From the NCBI GenBank assembly GCA_015061665.1, contig SUWC01000011.1, forward strand, positions 1 to 56,592: a stretch of 56,592 bases of DNA, given 5' to 3'. This document shows positions 19,176 through 26,725 of the stretch, in pieces. Source of the stretch: Lentisphaerota bacterium. Its GTDB lineage: Bacteria; Verrucomicrobiota; Kiritimatiellia; RFP12; UBA1067. The notes beneath the pieces were generated by a model. That model was given only the letters and a program-made list of their open reading frames with translations, did not search any database and was not told the origin of the DNA. Positions within the stretch are counted from its first letter, which is position 1, and each line of letters begins with the position of its first letter. Position numbers and translations under genes: made by a program.

Positions 19176-20336
19176 ATGAAAAATCATGAAGTCCTTGTGC
19201 TGATCAGCACCGATCCGCCGCAGCGCTTCCAGGGAATAGCGCGCCTTGCCGGCGAATGCGACTGGCATATTCGCGCCGAAAAGCGCGCAATGCCGCCGAA
19301 GGAATGGATTGGCGACGGCGTTCTTGTAATGCTGGATGGCTCCGCCGAGCTGATGGAGTTCGCCAAGAAAATCCAAAGGCGCGGCATTCCCCTCGTGGAC
19401 CTTATGGAAGAGTGCCCTTCCTTCGACGCTGTCCGCGTTACAGGGGACGACCCGGAAATCGGACGGCTTGCCGCAAGCCACTTCAACGAGCATGGGTTCC
19501 GTCATGCCGCATTCTTCTCGGTCCAGCACAACCACACCCACGACCTGCGACTTGGCGGCTTCAGCGAAGTCTGGGGAGGAGCGCCGGCTGAATCCTGGAT
19601 CTGGCCCGACGCGACGGGAGGGGCGAGGGACGACTGGCGCGGGATGGACGACTGGCTTGTCGCAAAGCTAAGGGACTCGCCCAAGCCTCTTGCGGTTTTC
19701 GCCTGGAACGACTACGACGCGACGCACGTCCTCAACGCCTGCCGACTCGCAGAACTCAGGGTCCCAGACGAGGTGGCTATCCTCGGGGTGGACAACAACC
19801 CCGTCATCTGCGAGCACCAGTCCGTGAACCTGTCGTCCATCGCCCACGACCACCAGCGCATCGGCTACACCGCCGCCGCGACGCTCGAGCGGATGATGTC
19901 AGGGGGCGAGCCAACTCGCCGCGTTACTCGAATAAAGCCCAGCGGCGTCGTTGTGCGCGAGTCCACCGAGACCTTCGCCGTGTACGACAAGGAACTGGTG
20001 CCCGCGATTGAATTCATACAGGGGAACATCGCGCATCCAATGGGCGCGGCGCAGGTCGCGGCGGCGCTCAAGATTCCACGGATACGCCTAGACCGCATGT
20101 TCGCAGCGAAACTGGGGCACAGCGCAGGGGCGGAGATAGCCCGCAGGCGCATCGCCGAGGCGAAGCGGCTTCTTTCGCGGACCGACCTCACCCTCTCGGA
20201 CATCGCCGCGCGGTGCGGCTACTGCCATGCATCCTTCTTCATAAGGTGCTTCAAGAAGACGACGGGGGTCACTCCGCAGATCTGGCGAAAGCGCGAGAAT
20301 TCCGCATCCGCATCCCGCTCTCCCTTTATGGTATAA
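19176..20336 (+). CDS. XylR-like transcriptional regulator (LacI-type sensor, AraC-type HTH)
   Basis: 386 aa. Residues ~1-270 resemble the periplasmic-binding/LacI sensor fold (GIPLVDLMEECPSFDAVRVT, GRLAASHFNEHGFRHAAFFS, AWNDYDATHVLNACRLAEL, VDNNPVICEH), and ~285-380 are an AraC HTH (RIAEAKRLLSRTDLTLSDIA, CGYCHASFFIRCFKKTTGV TP). This order is that of E. coli XylR, which activates xylose genes. Divergent arrangement with uxuA over 157 bp suggests control of uxuA, with a pentose or uronate as likely ligand (inference). The 3' end overlaps the -10 box of the next operon. Confidence 0.9.
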   Translation: MKNHEVLVLISTDPPQRFQGIARLAGECDWHIRAEKRAMPPKEWIGDGVLVMLDGSAELMEFAKKIQRRGIPLVDLMEECPSFDAVRVTGDDPEIGRLAASHFNEHGFRHAAFFSVQHNHTHDLRLGGFSEVWGGAPAESWIWPDATGGARDDWRGMDDWLVAKLRDSPKPLAVFAWNDYDATHVLNACRLAELRVPDEVAILGVDNNPVICEHQSVNLSSIAHDHQRIGYTAAATLERMMSGGEPTRRVTRIKPSGVVVRESTETFAVYDKELVPAIEFIQGNIAHPMGAAQVAAALKIPRIRLDRMFAAKLGHSAGAEIARRRIAEAKRLLSRTDLTLSDIAARCGYCHASFFIRCFKKTTGVTPQIWRKRENSASASRSPFMV

Positions 20337-20365: not shown

Positions 20366-21076
20366 ATGTTTGAAGTCCGTAACATATCATTCGCCTACGC
20401 CAGACGCCCCGTCCTGCGCGGCGTCTCCTTTGTCGTCTCGCCTGGCGAAACCGTCGCCATAGTCGGCGCAAACGGCTCTGGGAAGACAACCCTTCTCAAG
20501 ATACTGGCGACCCTTGCCCAGCCCGAGGGCGGCAGCGTGCTCGTTGACGGGCAGGACGCGCTTGCGATGCCGATAAGGTACCGCCGGCTCATGGGCTACA
20601 TGCCGGAATCGCCTGCGCTGTACGAGGACATGACCGTCAAGGGCTATCTCCGCTTCCGCGCACAGCTCAAGGGCGAACCAGAAAAGCGCATCCGCAGGCG
20701 CGTCGGCGAATCCGTCGAGATGTGCCAGCTCGCGCCATACCTGCGCCATCCGATCCGCTCGCTTTCCGCAGGGCTCAAGAAGCGCGTCGCGCTGGCGGAC
20801 GCCATGCTGCTTCGCCCGCGCGTCCTGCTGCTCGACGACTTCCTTTCCGGGCTCGACCGCGACCTGCGCGTGTCGTCCGAAAGCATAATCACCAACATCG
20901 CCGCGTTCGCAGGCGTCGTGGTCACAGGGCACGAGATCGCCGACATGTCAAAGTGGACTACCCGCTTTCTTGTCCTTCGCGACGGCAAGATTACCCATAC
21001 CGTCAGCTCCGCTGGAATCGACCGCGAATCGCTTGTCGCAAAGGTCGACGCCGCGCTTTCGGGAGGTGCGCAATGA
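20366..21076 (+). CDS. ABC transporter ATP-binding protein (GldA-like)
   Basis: 236 aa. Walker A GANGSGKTT (residues 34-42), signature LSAGLKKR, Walker B RVLLLDDF, and an H-loop region VVVTGHEIADMS. The family drives export or, in gliding Bacteroidetes, forms GldAFG. Its stop overlaps the start of the permease/GldG fusion (ATGA), so both are made together. The substrate is unknown; the same three-part cluster (ATPase, ABC-2/GldG, DUF4340) is widespread in non-gliding bacteria, so motility is not implied. Confidence 0.92.
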   Translation: MFEVRNISFAYARRPVLRGVSFVVSPGETVAIVGANGSGKTTLLKILATLAQPEGGSVLVDGQDALAMPIRYRRLMGYMPESPALYEDMTVKGYLRFRAQLKGEPEKRIRRRVGESVEMCQLAPYLRHPIRSLSAGLKKRVALADAMLLRPRVLLLDDFLSGLDRDLRVSSESIITNIAAFAGVVVTGHEIADMSKWTTRFLVLRDGKITHTVSSAGIDRESLVAKVDAALSGGAQ

Positions 21077-23148
21077 CGAGCGCAATGAAGATCATGTGGG
21101 CGCGCACGCTCGGCATATTGCGCTCCTCGTACACCACTGCCTTCGCCTACGCCGGGTTCCTCGCCGGGGCGGGAGCGCTCTTCGCGTTCGCGCTTGAGGC
21201 GGCCGAGGGCGGAACGGAGTCGCTGGCGGTAGTCTGGACCTCTTCTGCCGCGCCCGTGGTGCCTCTGCTTGCGGCGGTGCTTTCGATGGACCTCTGGAGC
21301 GAGGAGCTCCGCACGGGCAGGATTTCGATGCTGCTCTCTACCCCTGTCCGCGAACGCGAACTCGTCATCGGGAAATTCATGGGCGCATGGACGGCTACCG
21401 TGTTCGGACTAGTCATCTTCCTCGCGACGTCCATCGGCTTCATGGCCGCTTTTGCCCCTGCTCTGCTCTCCCGCGTTTCCGTCCTTGGATTCGTCCCAGG
21501 CCTGCTCGCGCTCGCCCTTCAGTCCGCCCTCTGGTGCGCCGTCTCGCTCGCCGCAAGCGCGGCTACAAAGAGCGTCGCGGTCTCGGGCCTGCTCTCCGTG
21601 TCGCTTACCACGCTTCTCCCGCGCGGAATCTGGCTCGCCATCCTGGCGTGGAGCCCTACGGGGCGCCAGGAGCTGGGCGCGATGCCAATCGATGCGAACG
21701 CAACGGACATGGCCTGCGGCCTTGTTTCCTCTGCGACAGTCCTGACTTACCTCGGGCTCACGCTCTTCGCGCTCTTCGTAAACTCAAAGCTCGTAGCATG
21801 CGCGCGTCTCGTCGGACGCGGCGCGCGCCAGCTCAGGATGTCGACGGCATTCACGATTGTCGCAGCCGCAGTCCTGGCAGCATCGTCCATCACGCTTGTC
21901 CACCGACTTGACGCGAAACTCGACATCCCAGTCGGCGGAACCGAGCGCAAGACCTTCTCGGCGCGCACACGCAACATCCTTTCAGAGGTCAGGGGCGAAC
22001 TCGTGATCTCAGCCTTCATGTCCCGCAAGGACCCGCACTTCCGCCAGACGGCCCACCTCCTGAGGTCGCTCTCGCGCGAAGCGGAGTCGGTCGGCGGCGT
22101 TAGGATCCAGGTCCGATATGTCGACCCTGTATGGGACATTGGGTCTGCGGAGCGCCTCGTCCGTGAGGGCGCTTCGCGCGACTCGCTTGTGTTCGAACGC
22201 GGGCGCCTCAAGGCATACCTTCCGCTCTCCGAGGGAATCGACGAGCGCAAGTGCACCTCCGCAATCGTCCGTCTCTGCATGCCGCCCCAGCGCCGCACAG
22301 TCTACTGGACACACGGGCACGGCGAATCGTCCTTCGACGAATACGGCGACTTCGGCATGAGCGACATCGCGCGCGAACTCGTCGGCGACGGGTACAGGAA
22401 CCTTCCGATCGACCTTTCGGACAAGGACCAGATTCCCTCCGACTGCGCTCTCATCGTCATGGCCGGCGCGACGCACGACTTCTCGCGCGCCGAACTCGGA
22501 CGGCTCGACTCCTACCTCAAGACAGGCGGACGCCTTCTGCTGCTCATGGGTTCGTCGGAGTCAGGCGGAATGACATCGCTGCTCTCGACATGGGGCATAA
22601 AGCCGTCGCCTTTGCCGATTTCGGACGGACCGACCATCACCGGAACCGACATCGTCATCTCGGACTTCGCCGAACATCCTGTCTCCGCCCCGCTGCGCGG
22701 ATCGCAGGTAATATTGGAGCGTCCGATCACCTTCACCCCTTCGGCCGCAGCGTCCGAATCGGGAACCGCAGTCGACCGAATCGGCTACAGCGAGCTCGCG
22801 CTGTCGCAGGGGCGCTGCGTCGCGGCCGTTGCAGAGCGCGGAGCAGGCACCGGCGAGGACGTCGCGCTCCGTCCGACGAGAATCATAACCGTCGGCGACG
22901 ACACGTTTGTCGCGAACGCGCAGCTCGAGTCGCGCGCCAACGCGAACCGCGACTTCTTCCTCAACTGCGTTGCGTACCTTTCTGGTTCCGCCGCCGTTGC
23001 CGAAGACGGCACGAGGACGGACCGTCTCGTAACGGGGCTCGACCGCGACGGACGCGGAAGGCTGCTTGTATTTTCGTCCGCGATCCTGCCTGCTGCGGTA
23101 TTCGTGCTTCTGGCTCTTTTAATCGCCTCGGGAAGGAGGAATCCATGA
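21073..23148 (+). CDS. ABC-2 permease fused to GldG-like auxiliary domain
   Basis: 691 aa from ATG 21073 (ATGA overlap with the ATPase; upstream reading is out-of-frame shadow). Residues ~1-255 are an ABC-2 permease with about six membrane segments and LWSEELRTGRISMLLSTPVR. A seventh segment (~262-282) leads into an extracytoplasmic GldG/ABC_transp_aux domain with FSARTRNILSEVRGELVISA, RYVDPVWD, TVYWTHGHGESSFDEYGDFG and a final membrane helix (ILPAAVFVLLALLIA). GldF and GldG are separate proteins in gliding Bacteroidetes; here they form one polypeptide. The next gene again overlaps by 4 bp. Confidence 0.9.
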   Translation: MTSAMKIMWARTLGILRSSYTTAFAYAGFLAGAGALFAFALEAAEGGTESLAVVWTSSAAPVVPLLAAVLSMDLWSEELRTGRISMLLSTPVRERELVIGKFMGAWTATVFGLVIFLATSIGFMAAFAPALLSRVSVLGFVPGLLALALQSALWCAVSLAASAATKSVAVSGLLSVSLTTLLPRGIWLAILAWSPTGRQELGAMPIDANATDMACGLVSSATVLTYLGLTLFALFVNSKLVACARLVGRGARQLRMSTAFTIVAAAVLAASSITLVHRLDAKLDIPVGGTERKTFSARTRNILSEVRGELVISAFMSRKDPHFRQTAHLLRSLSREAESVGGVRIQVRYVDPVWDIGSAERLVREGASRDSLVFERGRLKAYLPLSEGIDERKCTSAIVRLCMPPQRRTVYWTHGHGESSFDEYGDFGMSDIARELVGDGYRNLPIDLSDKDQIPSDCALIVMAGATHDFSRAELGRLDSYLKTGGRLLLLMGSSESGGMTSLLSTWGIKPSPLPISDGPTITGTDIVISDFAEHPVSAPLRGSQVILERPITFTPSAAASESGTAVDRIGYSELALSQGRCVAAVAERGAGTGEDVALRPTRIITVGDDTFVANAQLESRANANRDFFLNCVAYLSGSAAVAEDGTRTDRLVTGLDRDGRGRLLVFSSAILPAAVFVLLALLIASGRRNP

Positions 23149-24863
23149 AAAACAGAAAAGCGATTTCGTGGATATTCATCGCGATTGTCCTGACGATCGC
23201 GGCGCACCTCTTCCTGTCGTACAAGGGCGACGTCGCGGCATCGCTCGTCCAGCGCTCCGCCCTTCTCGACGAACCGTTCGTACAGCCCGACAGGCTGTCC
23301 GTCGAGGTGCGCGGCAAATCCGCCGCTGTCATCGAAAAGCAGGGCGCGAACTGGCGCATGGTCTCGCCTTATGCGGCGCTTGCGGACGAACGGGCCGTCA
23401 TGAGGCTGCTGGACCTTCTTTCCGTCACCATGATCGAAGACACGCTTGGCGACCAGGAACTTCTGAAGCTCGGCCGCACCCGTGAGGACTTCGGACTTGA
23501 AGAGCCCGAGGCGAAGATCCGCGTCAACGACGGGAAATCCCTCACGGAAATCTCCTTCGGATGCCTGACGCCCGCCGGCAGGGGCGTATACGCGACGGTC
23601 AACGACGAGAAAGCCGTCTACGTAGTCTCGACCAACGTCTTCTCCGCGGCGAATCTGCCGCCGGACGGCTTCCGCAACCGCAGGCTCTTCCCAGAACTAG
23701 GAGGGGCAGTATCGTCGTTCGACCTCAAGCGCGGCACCGGGTCGTTCATGCGCTTCATGAGAATGGGCGATGCATGGATGATGAACGAGCCCGAGCAGTC
23801 CGCGGCAAGCGCGACAAAGGTCAAGGACCTCCTTGCCGCAGCGAATTCGGCGACTGCCGTGGAGTTCGTCTGGCCCGTCGGCGCTCAGGGTGAAGTGGCA
23901 ACGGCAAGCGCCTCGCTTCTCGCAGGGTACGGACTAGACCCCGAAAGCGCCGTGACGCTGACAATCCGCTGTTCGGACGGCGTCGACAGCCAGGTATCGT
24001 TCGGCAAGGAGGCGAAGGACGGACTTGTCTACGCGCTTGTGCAGGGCGCTGGCGCGATCGCGACGGTCGACGCAAAGCTGAAGGACCTTGCGCTGGCGGG
24101 AGCCCACGACTTCACCGACACGCGCCTCTTCCCGCTCGACGCGCGCACGGCGACGCGCATCTCGGTTTCGGACGGAGGCGTGAACTACCTGCTCGCCAAG
24201 GACGACAGCGGAGAATGGAGGCTAGACGCGCCGGTCGTCGCGAAGACGGACAACGCGAGCGTCGACAAGTTCCTGAAGCGCCTCTTCGAGCTCAAGTCTA
24301 CCGACCTCGACGCGAACGGAATAACCGTCATCGCCGTGACATCCGCTCCGCCCTGCGTCGTTTCGCGCAGAGCCCTACTCGGCGACTTGCGCCTCGAGGA
24401 TCTGCGCAGCCGAGAGATCATCAACGTCGCCCCCGCGGCCGTAAGACGGCTCGTCACGACGCCACGCGGCGAAAAGCCGACAGCCGTCGTATACGACAAA
24501 GACAGGCGCGCGTGGAACATCGAGGACACGCCCGTCCCTGGCAGCGTTTCAACAGAGGGGATAGAAACTGTCCTAGCCGCTCTGAGCCCTGTCAAGGCAG
24601 AGACTATCGTCAAGCTCAAGGTGTCCGCCGCCGAGCTGCGCGAATACGGGCTCGAAACGCCGCGCGTCTCCGTTGCAGTTGACAGCGACAACGTTGACTT
24701 GATAAGACGCAACCTTCTGATAGGCGACAAGGCCGAAGCAGGAGGATTCTACGCGACGCTCGGGGCGACAGACGCCGTTTTCGTGATTTCAGAGGAAACC
24801 GTGCGCAAACTCATGTCCAGCCTTGTCAAGGCGGACGGAAGCGAAAAAAAGGACGCAAAGTGA
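23145..24863 (+). CDS. DUF4340 domain-containing membrane-anchored protein
   Basis: 572 aa from ATG 23145 (SD GGAAGGAGG, ATGA overlap). N-terminal membrane anchor (ISWIFIAIVLTIAAHLFL), then repeated beta-rich units typical of DUF4340 (WRMVSPYAALADERAVMRLL, LGLEEPEAKIRV-like blocks, GRGVYATVNDEKAVYVVS, ARTATRISVSDGGVNYLLAK, LREYGLETPRVSVAV). The family sits beside GldG-type permeases and is thought to be an envelope partner; its biochemical role is unknown. The stop overlaps the GTG start of aroCB. Confidence 0.88.
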   Translation: MKNRKAISWIFIAIVLTIAAHLFLSYKGDVAASLVQRSALLDEPFVQPDRLSVEVRGKSAAVIEKQGANWRMVSPYAALADERAVMRLLDLLSVTMIEDTLGDQELLKLGRTREDFGLEEPEAKIRVNDGKSLTEISFGCLTPAGRGVYATVNDEKAVYVVSTNVFSAANLPPDGFRNRRLFPELGGAVSSFDLKRGTGSFMRFMRMGDAWMMNEPEQSAASATKVKDLLAAANSATAVEFVWPVGAQGEVATASASLLAGYGLDPESAVTLTIRCSDGVDSQVSFGKEAKDGLVYALVQGAGAIATVDAKLKDLALAGAHDFTDTRLFPLDARTATRISVSDGGVNYLLAKDDSGEWRLDAPVVAKTDNASVDKFLKRLFELKSTDLDANGITVIAVTSAPPCVVSRRALLGDLRLEDLRSREIINVAPAAVRRLVTTPRGEKPTAVVYDKDRRAWNIEDTPVPGSVSTEGIETVLAALSPVKAETIVKLKVSAAELREYGLETPRVSVAVDSDNVDLIRRNLLIGDKAEAGGFYATLGATDAVFVISEETVRKLMSSLVKADGSEKKDAK

Positions 24864-26725
24864 AGATCGGCAACTGCATCAAGCTTGAGACATACGGAGA
24901 ATCCCACGCCCCTTTCATCGGCATGCGGATGGAGGGATTCCCCGAAGGCGAAAAGGTCGACATCGACAAACTCCAGGCTTTCATGGAAAGGCGCGCGCCA
25001 GGGCGCGACGCGATGTCCACCCCCAGGTTCGAGGCCGACAAGCCAGAGTTCAAGTCAGGAATAGCCGACGGCGTTACTACAGGCTCTCCGATCGAGGCTA
25101 TAATCCTCAATACGAACACGCGCTCGGGCGACTACGAAAAAACCGTCCCGCGGCCTGGCCATGCGGACTTCCCCAACTACGTCAAGACGGGGCGCATCCC
25201 CGCAGGCGGCGGAGCGAACTCCGGGCGCCTCACAGCGGCGATGTGCATTGCGGGCGGACTGTGCCTCCAGGCGCTGGAAAGGCGCGGCATATCCGTTTCG
25301 GCGCGCATCGAAACGGTCGGCGACATAATGTCCGCAAAGGAAGAAGGAGATTCCGTCGGCGGAACGATATGCGCGACGGTGACGGGCGTTCCCGTCGGTC
25401 TCGGCGGCGCGATGTTCGACGGCATTGACGGCGCGCTCGCGCAGGCGCTGTTCGGCATCCCTGGACTTCGCGCGTTCGAGATCGGCAACGGTTTCGCGTG
25501 CGCATCGCTCAAGGGCTCCGAGAACAACGACGCATTCGCGATTCGCGACGGCAAGGTCGTGACGCTGACGAATCGTCACGGCGGCGTCTTGGGTGGAATG
25601 ACAACGGGCATGCCGATCGAGCTGCGCGTGGCGATGAAGCCCACTCCGTCGATCTACAAGGAGCAGAAGAGCGTCGACCTCAAGACGATGACGGAGACGA
25701 CGCTTGTTGTCCGCGGCAGGCACGATCCCTGCATCGCGCGGCGCGCCCTTCCTGTCGTAGAGGCGCTTGTCGCGTTCACGGTCTTTGACGCAGTGGTTGC
25801 AGAGGAAGGCAATGTGGCCTACGGTCCGCTGAGCGATCCCAAGAACGTCGTCATCGACGGAAACGTCGCGAAGCTCTACCCCGAACTGGCAAAGAACGCA
25901 ATCTACGTCATTCCGTCGGGAGAGGAGAACAAGACGATCGCGACCGTCGCAGCGCTCTGGAGCGCGTTTGCGAAGGCGGGGCTTGGACGAAAGGACTGCG
26001 TCACCGCGATCGGCGGAGGCGTTACGTGCGACCTCACCGGATTCGCCGCCGCAACGTTCATGCGAGGAATAGACTGGATCAACTGTCCGACCACCCTTCT
26101 CGCGATGGTCGACGCATCCTACGGCGGAAAGACTGCCTGCGACCTGCCCGAGGGGAAGAACCTTGCAGGGGCGTTTCATCCGCCGCGGAAGGTCTGCATC
26201 GACACGCGGTTCCTGAAGACCCTTCCGCTGAAGATCCTTGCGGACGGCAAAGCCGAGATGATAAAGCACGAGGTGATCGGCGGACTTGAGCACGAACACG
26301 ACGTCTCCGGAATTCCGACGGCAGAGGAGCTTCGCAGAAACCTCGGGGTGAAGATAGGAATAGTGCGACGCGATCCGAACGAGAAGACAGGCGAGAGGAT
26401 CAAGCTGAACGCCGGGCACACCGTTGCGCATGCGATCGAGAAGGCGTCTTCCTACAGCATATCGCACGGCGAGGCGGTTGCAATCGGATGCGTCGAGGAG
26501 GCGCGCCTTGCGGAGCGCATGGGACTCGCCGCAGAAGGATGGTCCGATGAGCTAGCGGCGCGGTTCAGGTGTGCAGGGCTCCCCACCGAACTTCCGGACG
26601 GCATGACCTTCGACTCGCTTCGTCCGCTTATGAAAGGCGACAAGAAGCGCGAAGGCAACACCATCGTCTTCGCGCTCCCGTGCGGCTGGGGCGACGTCCG
26701 CCCAACCACAATCACCCTAGGCTAA
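24860..26725 (+). CDS. Fused chorismate synthase / 3-dehydroquinate synthase
   Basis: 621 aa in one open frame from GTG 24860 (GTGA overlap with the DUF4340 gene). Residues ~1-316 are chorismate synthase: ETYGESHAPFIG, RRAPGRDAMSTPRFEADKPE, PRPGHADF, EGDSVGG, RHDPCIARRALPVVEAL. Residues ~325-621 are 3-dehydroquinate synthase: PSGEENKT, GGGVTCDLTGFAAATFMRG, PTTLLAMVDASYGGKT, GKNLAGAF, AEMIKHE, GHTVAHAIE and SHGEAVAIG, so the metal ligands (Glu, His, His) and the Lys of GGKT are kept. These are shikimate steps 7 and 2. Both halves are shorter than the free enzymes: AroC lacks some 25-40 residues in its middle and AroB most of the first ~50. A fusion of the first (AroB) and last (AroC) enzymes differs from the AROM order. 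Domain calls are firm; activity of both is inferred. Confidence 0.93.
   Translation: MKIGNCIKLETYGESHAPFIGMRMEGFPEGEKVDIDKLQAFMERRAPGRDAMSTPRFEADKPEFKSGIADGVTTGSPIEAIILNTNTRSGDYEKTVPRPGHADFPNYVKTGRIPAGGGANSGRLTAAMCIAGGLCLQALERRGISVSARIETVGDIMSAKEEGDSVGGTICATVTGVPVGLGGAMFDGIDGALAQALFGIPGLRAFEIGNGFACASLKGSENNDAFAIRDGKVVTLTNRHGGVLGGMTTGMPIELRVAMKPTPSIYKEQKSVDLKTMTETTLVVRGRHDPCIARRALPVVEALVAFTVFDAVVAEEGNVAYGPLSDPKNVVIDGNVAKLYPELAKNAIYVIPSGEENKTIATVAALWSAFAKAGLGRKDCVTAIGGGVTCDLTGFAAATFMRGIDWINCPTTLLAMVDASYGGKTACDLPEGKNLAGAFHPPRKVCIDTRFLKTLPLKILADGKAEMIKHEVIGGLEHEHDVSGIPTAEELRRNLGVKIGIVRRDPNEKTGERIKLNAGHTVAHAIEKASSYSISHGEAVAIGCVEEARLAERMGLAAEGWSDELAARFRCAGLPTELPDGMTFDSLRPLMKGDKKREGNTIVFALPCGWGDVRPTTITLG

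What the first reader, a model, noticed from the sequence alone, without database searches (positions are those of the whole stretch)
24860..26725. Fusion of chorismate synthase and 3-dehydroquinate synthase
One uninterrupted frame carries AroC motifs (PRPGHADF, RHDPCIARRALPV) followed by AroB motifs (GGGVTCDLTGFAAA, PTTLLAMVDASYGGKT, GHTVAHAIE). The last and the second shikimate enzymes are joined in the order AroC-AroB, unlike the AROM protein. Both halves are trimmed (AroC lacks a stretch before EGDSVGG, AroB most of its N-terminal strands), so the fusion seems adapted rather than accidental. It is translationally coupled to an ABC/DUF4340 module.
Basis: partly seen in the sequence, partly recalled or inferred. 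Interest (0 to 1): 0.8.

Follow-up and report, generated by a model that had tools for sequence, protein, structure and literature searches.

The report
Bacterial AroC-AroB shikimate fusion enzyme
A group of uncultured bacteria encodes the last and the second enzyme of the aromatic amino acid pathway as one protein, and its close relatives join the same pathway's enzymes in other combinations, which makes it a natural test of why such enzymes become fused.

Summary
Window 24860-26725 (+) is one open frame of 621 aa: a chorismate synthase (AroC) half, then a 3-dehydroquinate synthase (AroB) half. It is no assembly artefact: single-frame AroC-AroB matches occur in 19 of the 61 genomes held for this genus and were seen in none of the other 100 genomes of the order. 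Both halves are monophyletic, which fits one origin, and 25 of 26 positions that I took for functional sites are invariant in the 17 fused proteins aligned. The own genome shows no other AroC and only a distant DHQS-like paralogue.

The larger find lies around it. 18 of the 19 fusion genomes also carry AroK-AroA, some AroK-AroA-AroE, and 17 of 18 given have type II dehydroquinase. Twenty-seven sister species instead carry AroC-AroD(-AroE), many beside AroK-AroB. The trees place the fused AroB, AroK and AroE beside or inside domains of those other fusions, so domains were exchanged between multi-enzyme chains.

The parts
24860..26725 (+). AroC-AroB fusion gene, 621 aa
24860..25798 (+). chorismate synthase half (residues 1-313)
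   Evidence: PF01264 E 1.4e-97; PDB chorismate synthases 7rca, 1sq1, 1um0; H16, R44, R45, H101, R123, R287, H288, D289 invariant in 17 of 17 aligned fusions
25799..25855 (+). junction, residues 314-332, variable in sequence and length among fused orthologues
25856..26722 (+). 3-dehydroquinate synthase half (residues 333-621)
   Evidence: PF01761 and PF24621; PDB DHQ synthases 1ujn, 6lk2, 3okf; D391, K424, N434, E466, K469, K498, R513, N517, H520, H524, H536, K595 invariant in 17 of 17
24850..24863 (+). AGGA Shine-Dalgarno-like sequence (24850-24853) and GTGA stop/start overlap (24860-24863)
   Evidence: sequence read
22251..24863 (+). upstream DUF4340 frame that overlaps the fusion start; its real start is probably further downstream than 22251 (inference: the frame overlaps the previous gene by about 900 bases)
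   Evidence: PF14238 E 2.7e-53; no such neighbour in 21 related loci
20366..23148 (+). ABC ATPase (20366-21076) and ABC permease/GldG-like protein (20722-23148), upstream module

Best explanation
The gene encodes a bifunctional enzyme that catalyses step 2 (DAHP to 3-dehydroquinate, AroB half) and step 7 (EPSP to chorismate, AroC half) of the shikimate pathway and is the genome's main, probably only, source of both. The two steps are not consecutive, so direct hand-over of substrate between the two halves is not expected. The fusion more likely fixes co-expression, stoichiometry and co-assembly (AroC is known as a tetramer and AroB as a dimer; recalled). It arose once, by domain exchange in an operon of already fused shikimate enzymes. 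The AroB domain descends from an AroK-AroB fusion, and the AroK released in the exchange was joined to AroA; in several genomes the AroE of an AroC-AroD-AroE lineage was added, giving AroK-AroA-AroE. Type I dehydroquinase (AroD) was lost and type II (AroQ) does that step. Shown by computation: architecture, distribution, monophyly of the fused domains, invariant positions, co-occurrence with AroK-AroA and AroQ. Inferred: both activities, the assembly advantage, the direction of the exchange, and the exact route (tandem duplication of aroKB followed by complementary loss would turn C | K-B | A into C-B | K-A without changing the gene order).
For: Single-frame AroC-AroB in 19 of 61 genus genomes and seen in 0 of the other 100 of the order. 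Trees: 18 fused AroC form one group (98/95); 18 fused AroB form one group (98/91) and join 13 AroK-AroB rows at 100/100 inside a wider AroK-AroB lineage; AroK of 19 AroK-AroA chains form one group (100/99), joined to the same 13 AroK-AroB rows at 97/89; AroE of 8 AroK-AroA-AroE chains form one group (100/98) inside a 26-row clade (100/99) with the AroC-AroD-AroE rows. AroK-AroA in one frame in 18 of the 19 fusion genomes (G011 gave no match) and in G026, where no AroC-AroB was detected; no such match in the 27 AroC-AroD(-AroE) genomes. AroCB and AroKA(E) abut in the same order in 7 genomes. AroQ in 17 of 18, type I AroD in 0 of 18 fusion genomes given (G011 not given). Own genome: AroKA on C75, AroE on C101, AroQ on C151, one DAHP synthase on C51. 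25 of 26 positions invariant in 17 of 17 aligned fusions; I chose them by recalled function but after seeing the list of invariant columns, so this is a description, not a blind test.
Against: No activity is measured and no structure could be predicted. The AroB half misses the NCBIfam aroB cut-off (278.1 against 305). Residue 390 of the GGGVTGD loop is Cys here (G in 15 of 17, N in 1). A distant DHQS-like paralogue (C143, 30% identity; best model PRK06203, 181 bits, cut-off 333) could in principle supply AroB activity. In the AroA tree AroK-AroA separates from free AroA only at 79/90, and G035 sits on an extreme branch. AroC-AroD(-AroE) is a single group only weakly (66/90), so the order of events is not resolved. 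The AroE tree carries long-branch warnings. The genomes are drafts, 56-93% complete in this genus.
Confidence: 0.87

Rival explanations
1. Assembly or sequencing artefact that joins two adjacent genes.
For: The window comes from a draft genome of 177 contigs, 92% complete; direct aroC-aroB adjacency in separate frames exists elsewhere, e.g. a Clostridiales contig (L055).
Against: Single-frame matches in 19 genomes, the 18 others at 66-77% identity to this one, with a variable junction and third-position substitutions in both halves.
Confidence: 0.01
2. Only one half works: the AroB half (or the AroC half) is a structural remnant and the DHQS-like paralogue on C143 does step 2.
For: Cys390 in the NAD-loop motif, sub-threshold TIGR01357 score, and a PRK06203-like paralogue in the genome.
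Against: The other AroB positions checked are invariant in 17 of 17. Weak AroB-half matches of 27-29% identity also occur in genomes with a canonical AroK-AroB (G017, G030, G033), so such a paralogue is not tied to the fusion; I did not test that these are orthologues of the C143 gene.
Confidence: 0.08
3. The trims and the fusion are a joint structural adaptation.
For: The stretch before the PxGE motif is about 15 residues shorter in most fusions than in close AroK-AroB proteins, and the AroC loop is 7-8 residues shorter in 16 of 18 fused rows than in g28 free AroC.
Against: The larger part of both trims is present in relatives without this fusion; four free AroC of the genus have a loop as short (34-37), and two fused rows keep 45.
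Confidence: 0.07
4. The fusion came into this genus as a whole by horizontal transfer, not by local domain exchange.
For: An AroC-AroD-AroE plus AroK-AroB plus AroA operon occurs in a distant family of the phylum (G382, family f54), so such operons may move.
Against: No AroC-AroB fusion was seen outside the genus among 161 genomes of the order, 387 of the phylum or 29 of family f54 (the match lists of 23 and 49 are cut or thresholded); the fused AroB and AroK group with those of the same family.
Confidence: 0.06

Closest known systems
AROM / Aro1 pentafunctional protein of fungi and other eukaryotes
   Same: Several shikimate-pathway enzymes on one chain, including AroB; genomes with AroK-AroA-AroE hold AroB, AroA, AroK and AroE on two chains.
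   Different: AROM is AroB-AroA-AroK-AroD-AroE and excludes AroC (recalled; PMC3018139, passages, lists aroB, aroD, aroE, aroL, aroA). Here AroC is the N-terminal partner, the chain is bifunctional, and the AroB half groups with bacterial AroK-AroB.
Bacterial AroK-AroB bifunctional enzymes (NCBIfam PRK14021, PRK13951)
   Same: An AroB domain fused behind another shikimate enzyme; the fused AroB here is nested in the AroK-AroB lineage of the order.
   Different: The N-terminal partner is AroC instead of AroK; PRK14021 and PRK13951 scores are far below cut-off.
AroD-AroE bifunctional enzymes (PRK09310; plants, recalled)
   Same: Fusion within the same pathway; sister species carry AroC-AroD-AroE.
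   Different: No AroD or AroE domain in this protein.

Membership tests
Chorismate synthase (AroC) | Match to the curated family model | tested here: met
   TIGR00033 299.7 bits against cut-off 212.2; PF01264 326.8 bits against 27; PRK05382 narrowly missed, 316.7 against 321
Chorismate synthase (AroC) | Conserved catalytic His and FMN/EPSP-binding Arg residues (assignment recalled) | tested here: met
   H16, R44, R45, H101, R123, R287, H288, D289 invariant in 17 of 17 aligned fusions (positions chosen)
3-dehydroquinate synthase (AroB) | Curated whole-protein score | tested here: inconclusive
   PF01761 and PF24621 above gathering scores; TIGR01357 278.1 bits against cut-off 305, start of the profile missing
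3-dehydroquinate synthase (AroB) | Zn ligands (Glu, two His) and catalytic Lys/Arg/Asn residues (assignment recalled) | tested here: met
   E466, H520, H536, K424, K469, K498, R513, N517, H524, K595 invariant in 17 of 17 (positions chosen), aligned to PDB DHQ synthases
AROM | AroB-AroA-AroK-AroD-AroE on one chain | tested here: not met
   Only AroC and AroB domains present
AroK-AroB bifunctional enzyme | Shikimate kinase domain N-terminal to AroB | tested here: not met
   No SKI domain in the protein; AroK lies in an AroK-AroA fusion on another contig
Bifunctional AroC-AroB enzyme | Both activities in one polypeptide | not testable with these tools
   Needs an assay or complementation

The most novel reading that the evidence does not exclude
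Within one bacterial genus the shikimate enzymes behave as exchangeable modules: AroC, AroB, AroK, AroA, AroD and AroE have been regrouped into different multi-enzyme chains (C-D(-E) | K-B | A against C-B | K-A(-E)). The paired chains assemble into one shikimate multi-enzyme particle, an independent bacterial counterpart of AROM that also includes chorismate synthase, and the assembly, not the order of domains in a chain, is what selection keeps.
Probability: 0.2. Interest if true: 0.8.

Novelty: new variant of a known kind. Interest (0 to 1): 0.6.

Why it matters
Why cells fuse shikimate enzymes (as in AROM) is an old question: channelling, stoichiometry or assembly. This genus offers a natural permutation series in which the same domains are joined in different combinations, including non-consecutive steps (7 and 2), so these explanations can be tested against each other. 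A fusion of non-consecutive steps argues against substrate hand-over as the only reason. It also adds chorismate synthase to the enzymes found in shikimate fusions and points to exchange of domains between existing fusion chains as the route.

Tried and rejected
Artefact: rejected by 18 other genomes with a single-frame match. Trims as adaptation: the matched lengths depend on the length of the search queries, so I did not use them; I measured spacings instead. There the motif spacing could not be read in 2 of 49 AroC rows (G017, G068) nor in 8 of 51 AroB rows (G018, G017, G068, G099, G136, G117, G043 and the paralogue G000x), and two AroB readings (G072 319, G075 24) are clearly false matches of the pattern and were dropped. 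Separate AroC or AroB in the genome: only a distant DHQS-like protein on C143. Type I AroD: none in 18 fusion genomes. A second PF00793 protein in the own genome (C119) proved to be KDO-8-phosphate synthase, not a DAHP synthase. Fusion elsewhere: adjacent but separate aroC and aroB, or AroC next to AroK-AroB, in Clostridiales and Chloroflexi contigs (L055; L050, L052). The genome-contig scan used six peptide patterns of this protein; the phylum search scored at most 3 candidates per genome at E 1e-60; the match list is cut; distant fusions could have been missed. Promoter/terminator scan: nothing above chance. Literature: searches; I saw listings only (capped, e.g. 20 of 47 and 12 of 426 papers) and no title or abstract start reports AroC-AroB. 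PMC3018139, PMC11439500 and PMC9074039 were seen as passages; a term search of PMC9137983 for fusion words gave nothing; Richards et al. 2006 (PMC1563581) is not held. Subscription papers and protein-domain databases outside these tools were not searched.
Full report
OBSERVATION. Window 24860-26725 (+) is a single frame of 621 aa. Pfam finds chorismate synthase (PF01264, E 1.4e-97) followed by 3-dehydroquinate synthase (PF01761 at 349-458, E 8.3e-41; PF24621 at 463-596, E 1.1e-25). The NCBIfam model TIGR00033 (aroC) passes its cut-off; TIGR01357 (aroB) stops short, 278.1 against 305 bits, with the first 47 profile positions unmatched. The GTG start has AGGA six bases upstream and overlaps the preceding DUF4340 stop by 4 nt; 13 of 17 aligned fusions have ATG or GTG at this place.

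IT IS REAL. The window is contig C18 of a 3.44-Mb draft genome, 92% complete. A search of the order (161 genomes) gave single-frame AroC-AroB matches in 19 genomes, all among the 61 held for this genus; none was seen among the other 100 (the printed match list is cut at its weak end). In G011 the match is cut by a contig end, G082 has two copies, and in G001 the match counts one TAG although a 619-aa open frame spans both domains. In 387 genomes drawn from the phylum (overlapping set, E 1e-60, at most 3 candidates scored per genome) the fusion appeared in 4, all of this genus; in 29 genomes of a distant family in none. A scan of named genomes gave 13 fused loci, labelled Kiritimatiellae or Kiritimatiellia, Verrucomicrobia or Lentisphaerae, 4 of the 13 titles naming a ruminant gut site; several are the same contigs as by their length. 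Identity to the window protein is 66-76% over the 16 other fused proteins aligned (G001, G011 and the second G082 copy were not in that alignment). Against four of these, codon differences lie mainly at third positions in both halves, whereas residues 314-332 are variable.

BOTH HALVES LOOK INTACT. I counted 26 positions that I recall as binding substrate, FMN, NAD or zinc in AroC and AroB: 25 are invariant in 17 of 17 aligned fusions. I chose them after seeing the invariant columns, so this describes more than it tests. The 26th, residue 390 in the GGGVTGD motif, is Cys here, Gly in 15 and Asn in 1. Close PDB relatives by sequence are chorismate synthases 7rca, 1sq1 and 1um0 and DHQ synthases 1ujn, 6lk2 and 3okf. 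Against 1ujn, a 348-aa DHQ synthase, the AroB half aligns from chain residue 26 on.

THE TRIMS ARE MOSTLY NOT TIED TO THE FUSION. The AroC stretch between the S(A/G)RxTA and GDSVGG motifs is 36-37 residues in 16 of 18 fused rows and 45 in two, 44 in the free AroC of sister genus g28, 44-48 in the 10 AroC-AroD(-AroE) rows where it could be read, 34-37 in four free AroC of the same genus and 72 in five distant relatives. The AroB stretch from the end of the preceding domain match to the PxGE motif is 34-54 residues in 18 fused rows (15 of them 34-39), 50-53 in 10 close AroK-AroB rows and 70-90 in eight distant ones. So the AroB N-terminus was already short in the AroK-AroB relatives, and about 15 more residues went at the junction.

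THE REST OF THE PATHWAY. In the own genome AroK and AroA form a second fusion of 525 aa on C75. AroE is on C101 (below the NCBIfam cut-off, 191.1 against 200.2), type II dehydroquinase on C151 and a DAHP synthase on C51; a second PF00793 protein, on C119, is KDO-8-phosphate synthase. With the fusion this covers all seven steps. There is no second AroC, and only a distant DHQS-like protein (C143, 30% identity; best model PRK06203 below its cut-off). Weak AroB-half matches of 27-29% identity also occur in genomes with a canonical AroK-AroB (G017, G030, G033), so such a paralogue is not tied to the fusion.

ARCHITECTURES IN THE GENUS. Of 61 genomes: 19 have AroC-AroB; 27 have AroC and AroD in one frame, 18 of them with AroE in the same frame (G014, G021 and G076 are cut by contig ends); 6 have free AroC with AroE-AroK (G004, G018, G024, G067, G072, G077); 9 could not be assigned (G003, G009, G015, G026, G060, G064, G074, G078, G079), because AroC was missing, cut or in a separate frame. 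AroK-AroA in one frame occurs in 18 of the 19 AroC-AroB genomes and in G026; no such match was found in the 27 or the 6. Eight of these 19 chains continue into AroE as AroK-AroA-AroE (checked by Pfam for two). AroCB and AroKA(E) abut on one strand in 7 genomes (G006, G059, G065, G066, G073, G080, G081); in the own genome they lie on different contigs. Type II dehydroquinase is in 17 of 18 and type I in 0 of 18 fusion genomes given (G011 was not given).

HOW IT AROSE. In maximum-likelihood trees 18 fused AroC domains form one group (98/95) and so do 18 fused AroB domains (98/91); the fused AroB joins 13 AroK-AroB rows (100/100) inside the wider AroK-AroB lineage. AroK of the AroK-AroA chains forms one group (100/99) joined to the same AroK-AroB set (97/89). 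AroE of AroK-AroA-AroE forms one group (100/98) in a clade (100/99) with AroE of AroC-AroD-AroE chains (that tree has long-branch warnings). The AroA tree agrees only weakly (79/90) and holds one extreme branch, G035. AroC-AroD(-AroE) is a single group only at 66/90. The simplest reading is one episode of domain exchange in an operon C(-D-E) | K-B | A, for instance tandem duplication of aroKB followed by complementary loss, giving C-B | K-A and K-A-E. This route is inference. The own genome's AroE belongs to another AroE group, beside G061 and G020, which have AroC-AroD and a separate AroE (100/99).

MECHANISM. The protein most likely performs steps 2 and 7. Because these are not consecutive, hand-over between its two halves is not expected; fixed stoichiometry and co-assembly are the likelier benefits. 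[quoted passage not shown] Whether AroCB binds AroKA(E) is unknown.

KNOWN OR NEW. AROM, AroK-AroB and AroD-AroE fusions are known. AroC-AroB, AroK-AroA(-AroE) and AroC-AroD-AroE did not turn up in the listings of searches of an open-access library; subscription papers and domain databases were not searched. I rate it a new variant of a known kind, notable because the variants occur side by side in one genus.

Noticed in passing
G000:C75:11685-13259 (locus L077:373-1950, minus strand): Second fusion in the same genome: shikimate kinase and EPSP synthase (AroK-AroA, 525 aa); in eight related genomes it continues into AroE as a trifunctional protein.
   Followed up: yes
L057:2053-4470, L058:1587-3956, L060:4445-6817: Sister species carry a trifunctional AroC-AroD-AroE chain next to AroK-AroB.
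   Followed up: yes
L206 (G382:C16), distant family of the phylum: An AroC-AroD-AroE plus AroK-AroB plus AroA operon also occurs in a distant family, 58% and 61% identical to the AroC and AroB halves, which suggests lateral transfer.
   Followed up: partly
window 26027-26029 (residue 390): Cys at the position that is Gly in 15 of 17 fusions in the GGGVTGD NAD-loop motif of the AroB half (Asn in one other).
   Followed up: no
L076:3622-4728 (G000:C143, minus strand): DHQ-synthase-like paralogue (PRK06203-like, below cut-off) between an Omp85 gene and an SMC-like gene; similarly weak AroB-half matches are seen in many genomes of the genus, but were not shown to be orthologues.
   Followed up: partly
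G000:C101 AroE (L166:4150-5001): The own genome's AroE is not the lineage found in AroK-AroA-AroE but groups with the separate AroE of AroC-AroD genomes, a sign of gene replacement.
   Followed up: partly
window 19176-20336 (+): Regulator with a LacI-type sugar-binding domain fused to an AraC-type DNA-binding domain.
   Followed up: no
window 20366-24863 (+): GldA/GldF/GldG-like ABC module with a DUF4340 protein directly upstream of the fusion; its end overlaps the fusion start by 4 nt.
   Followed up: partly
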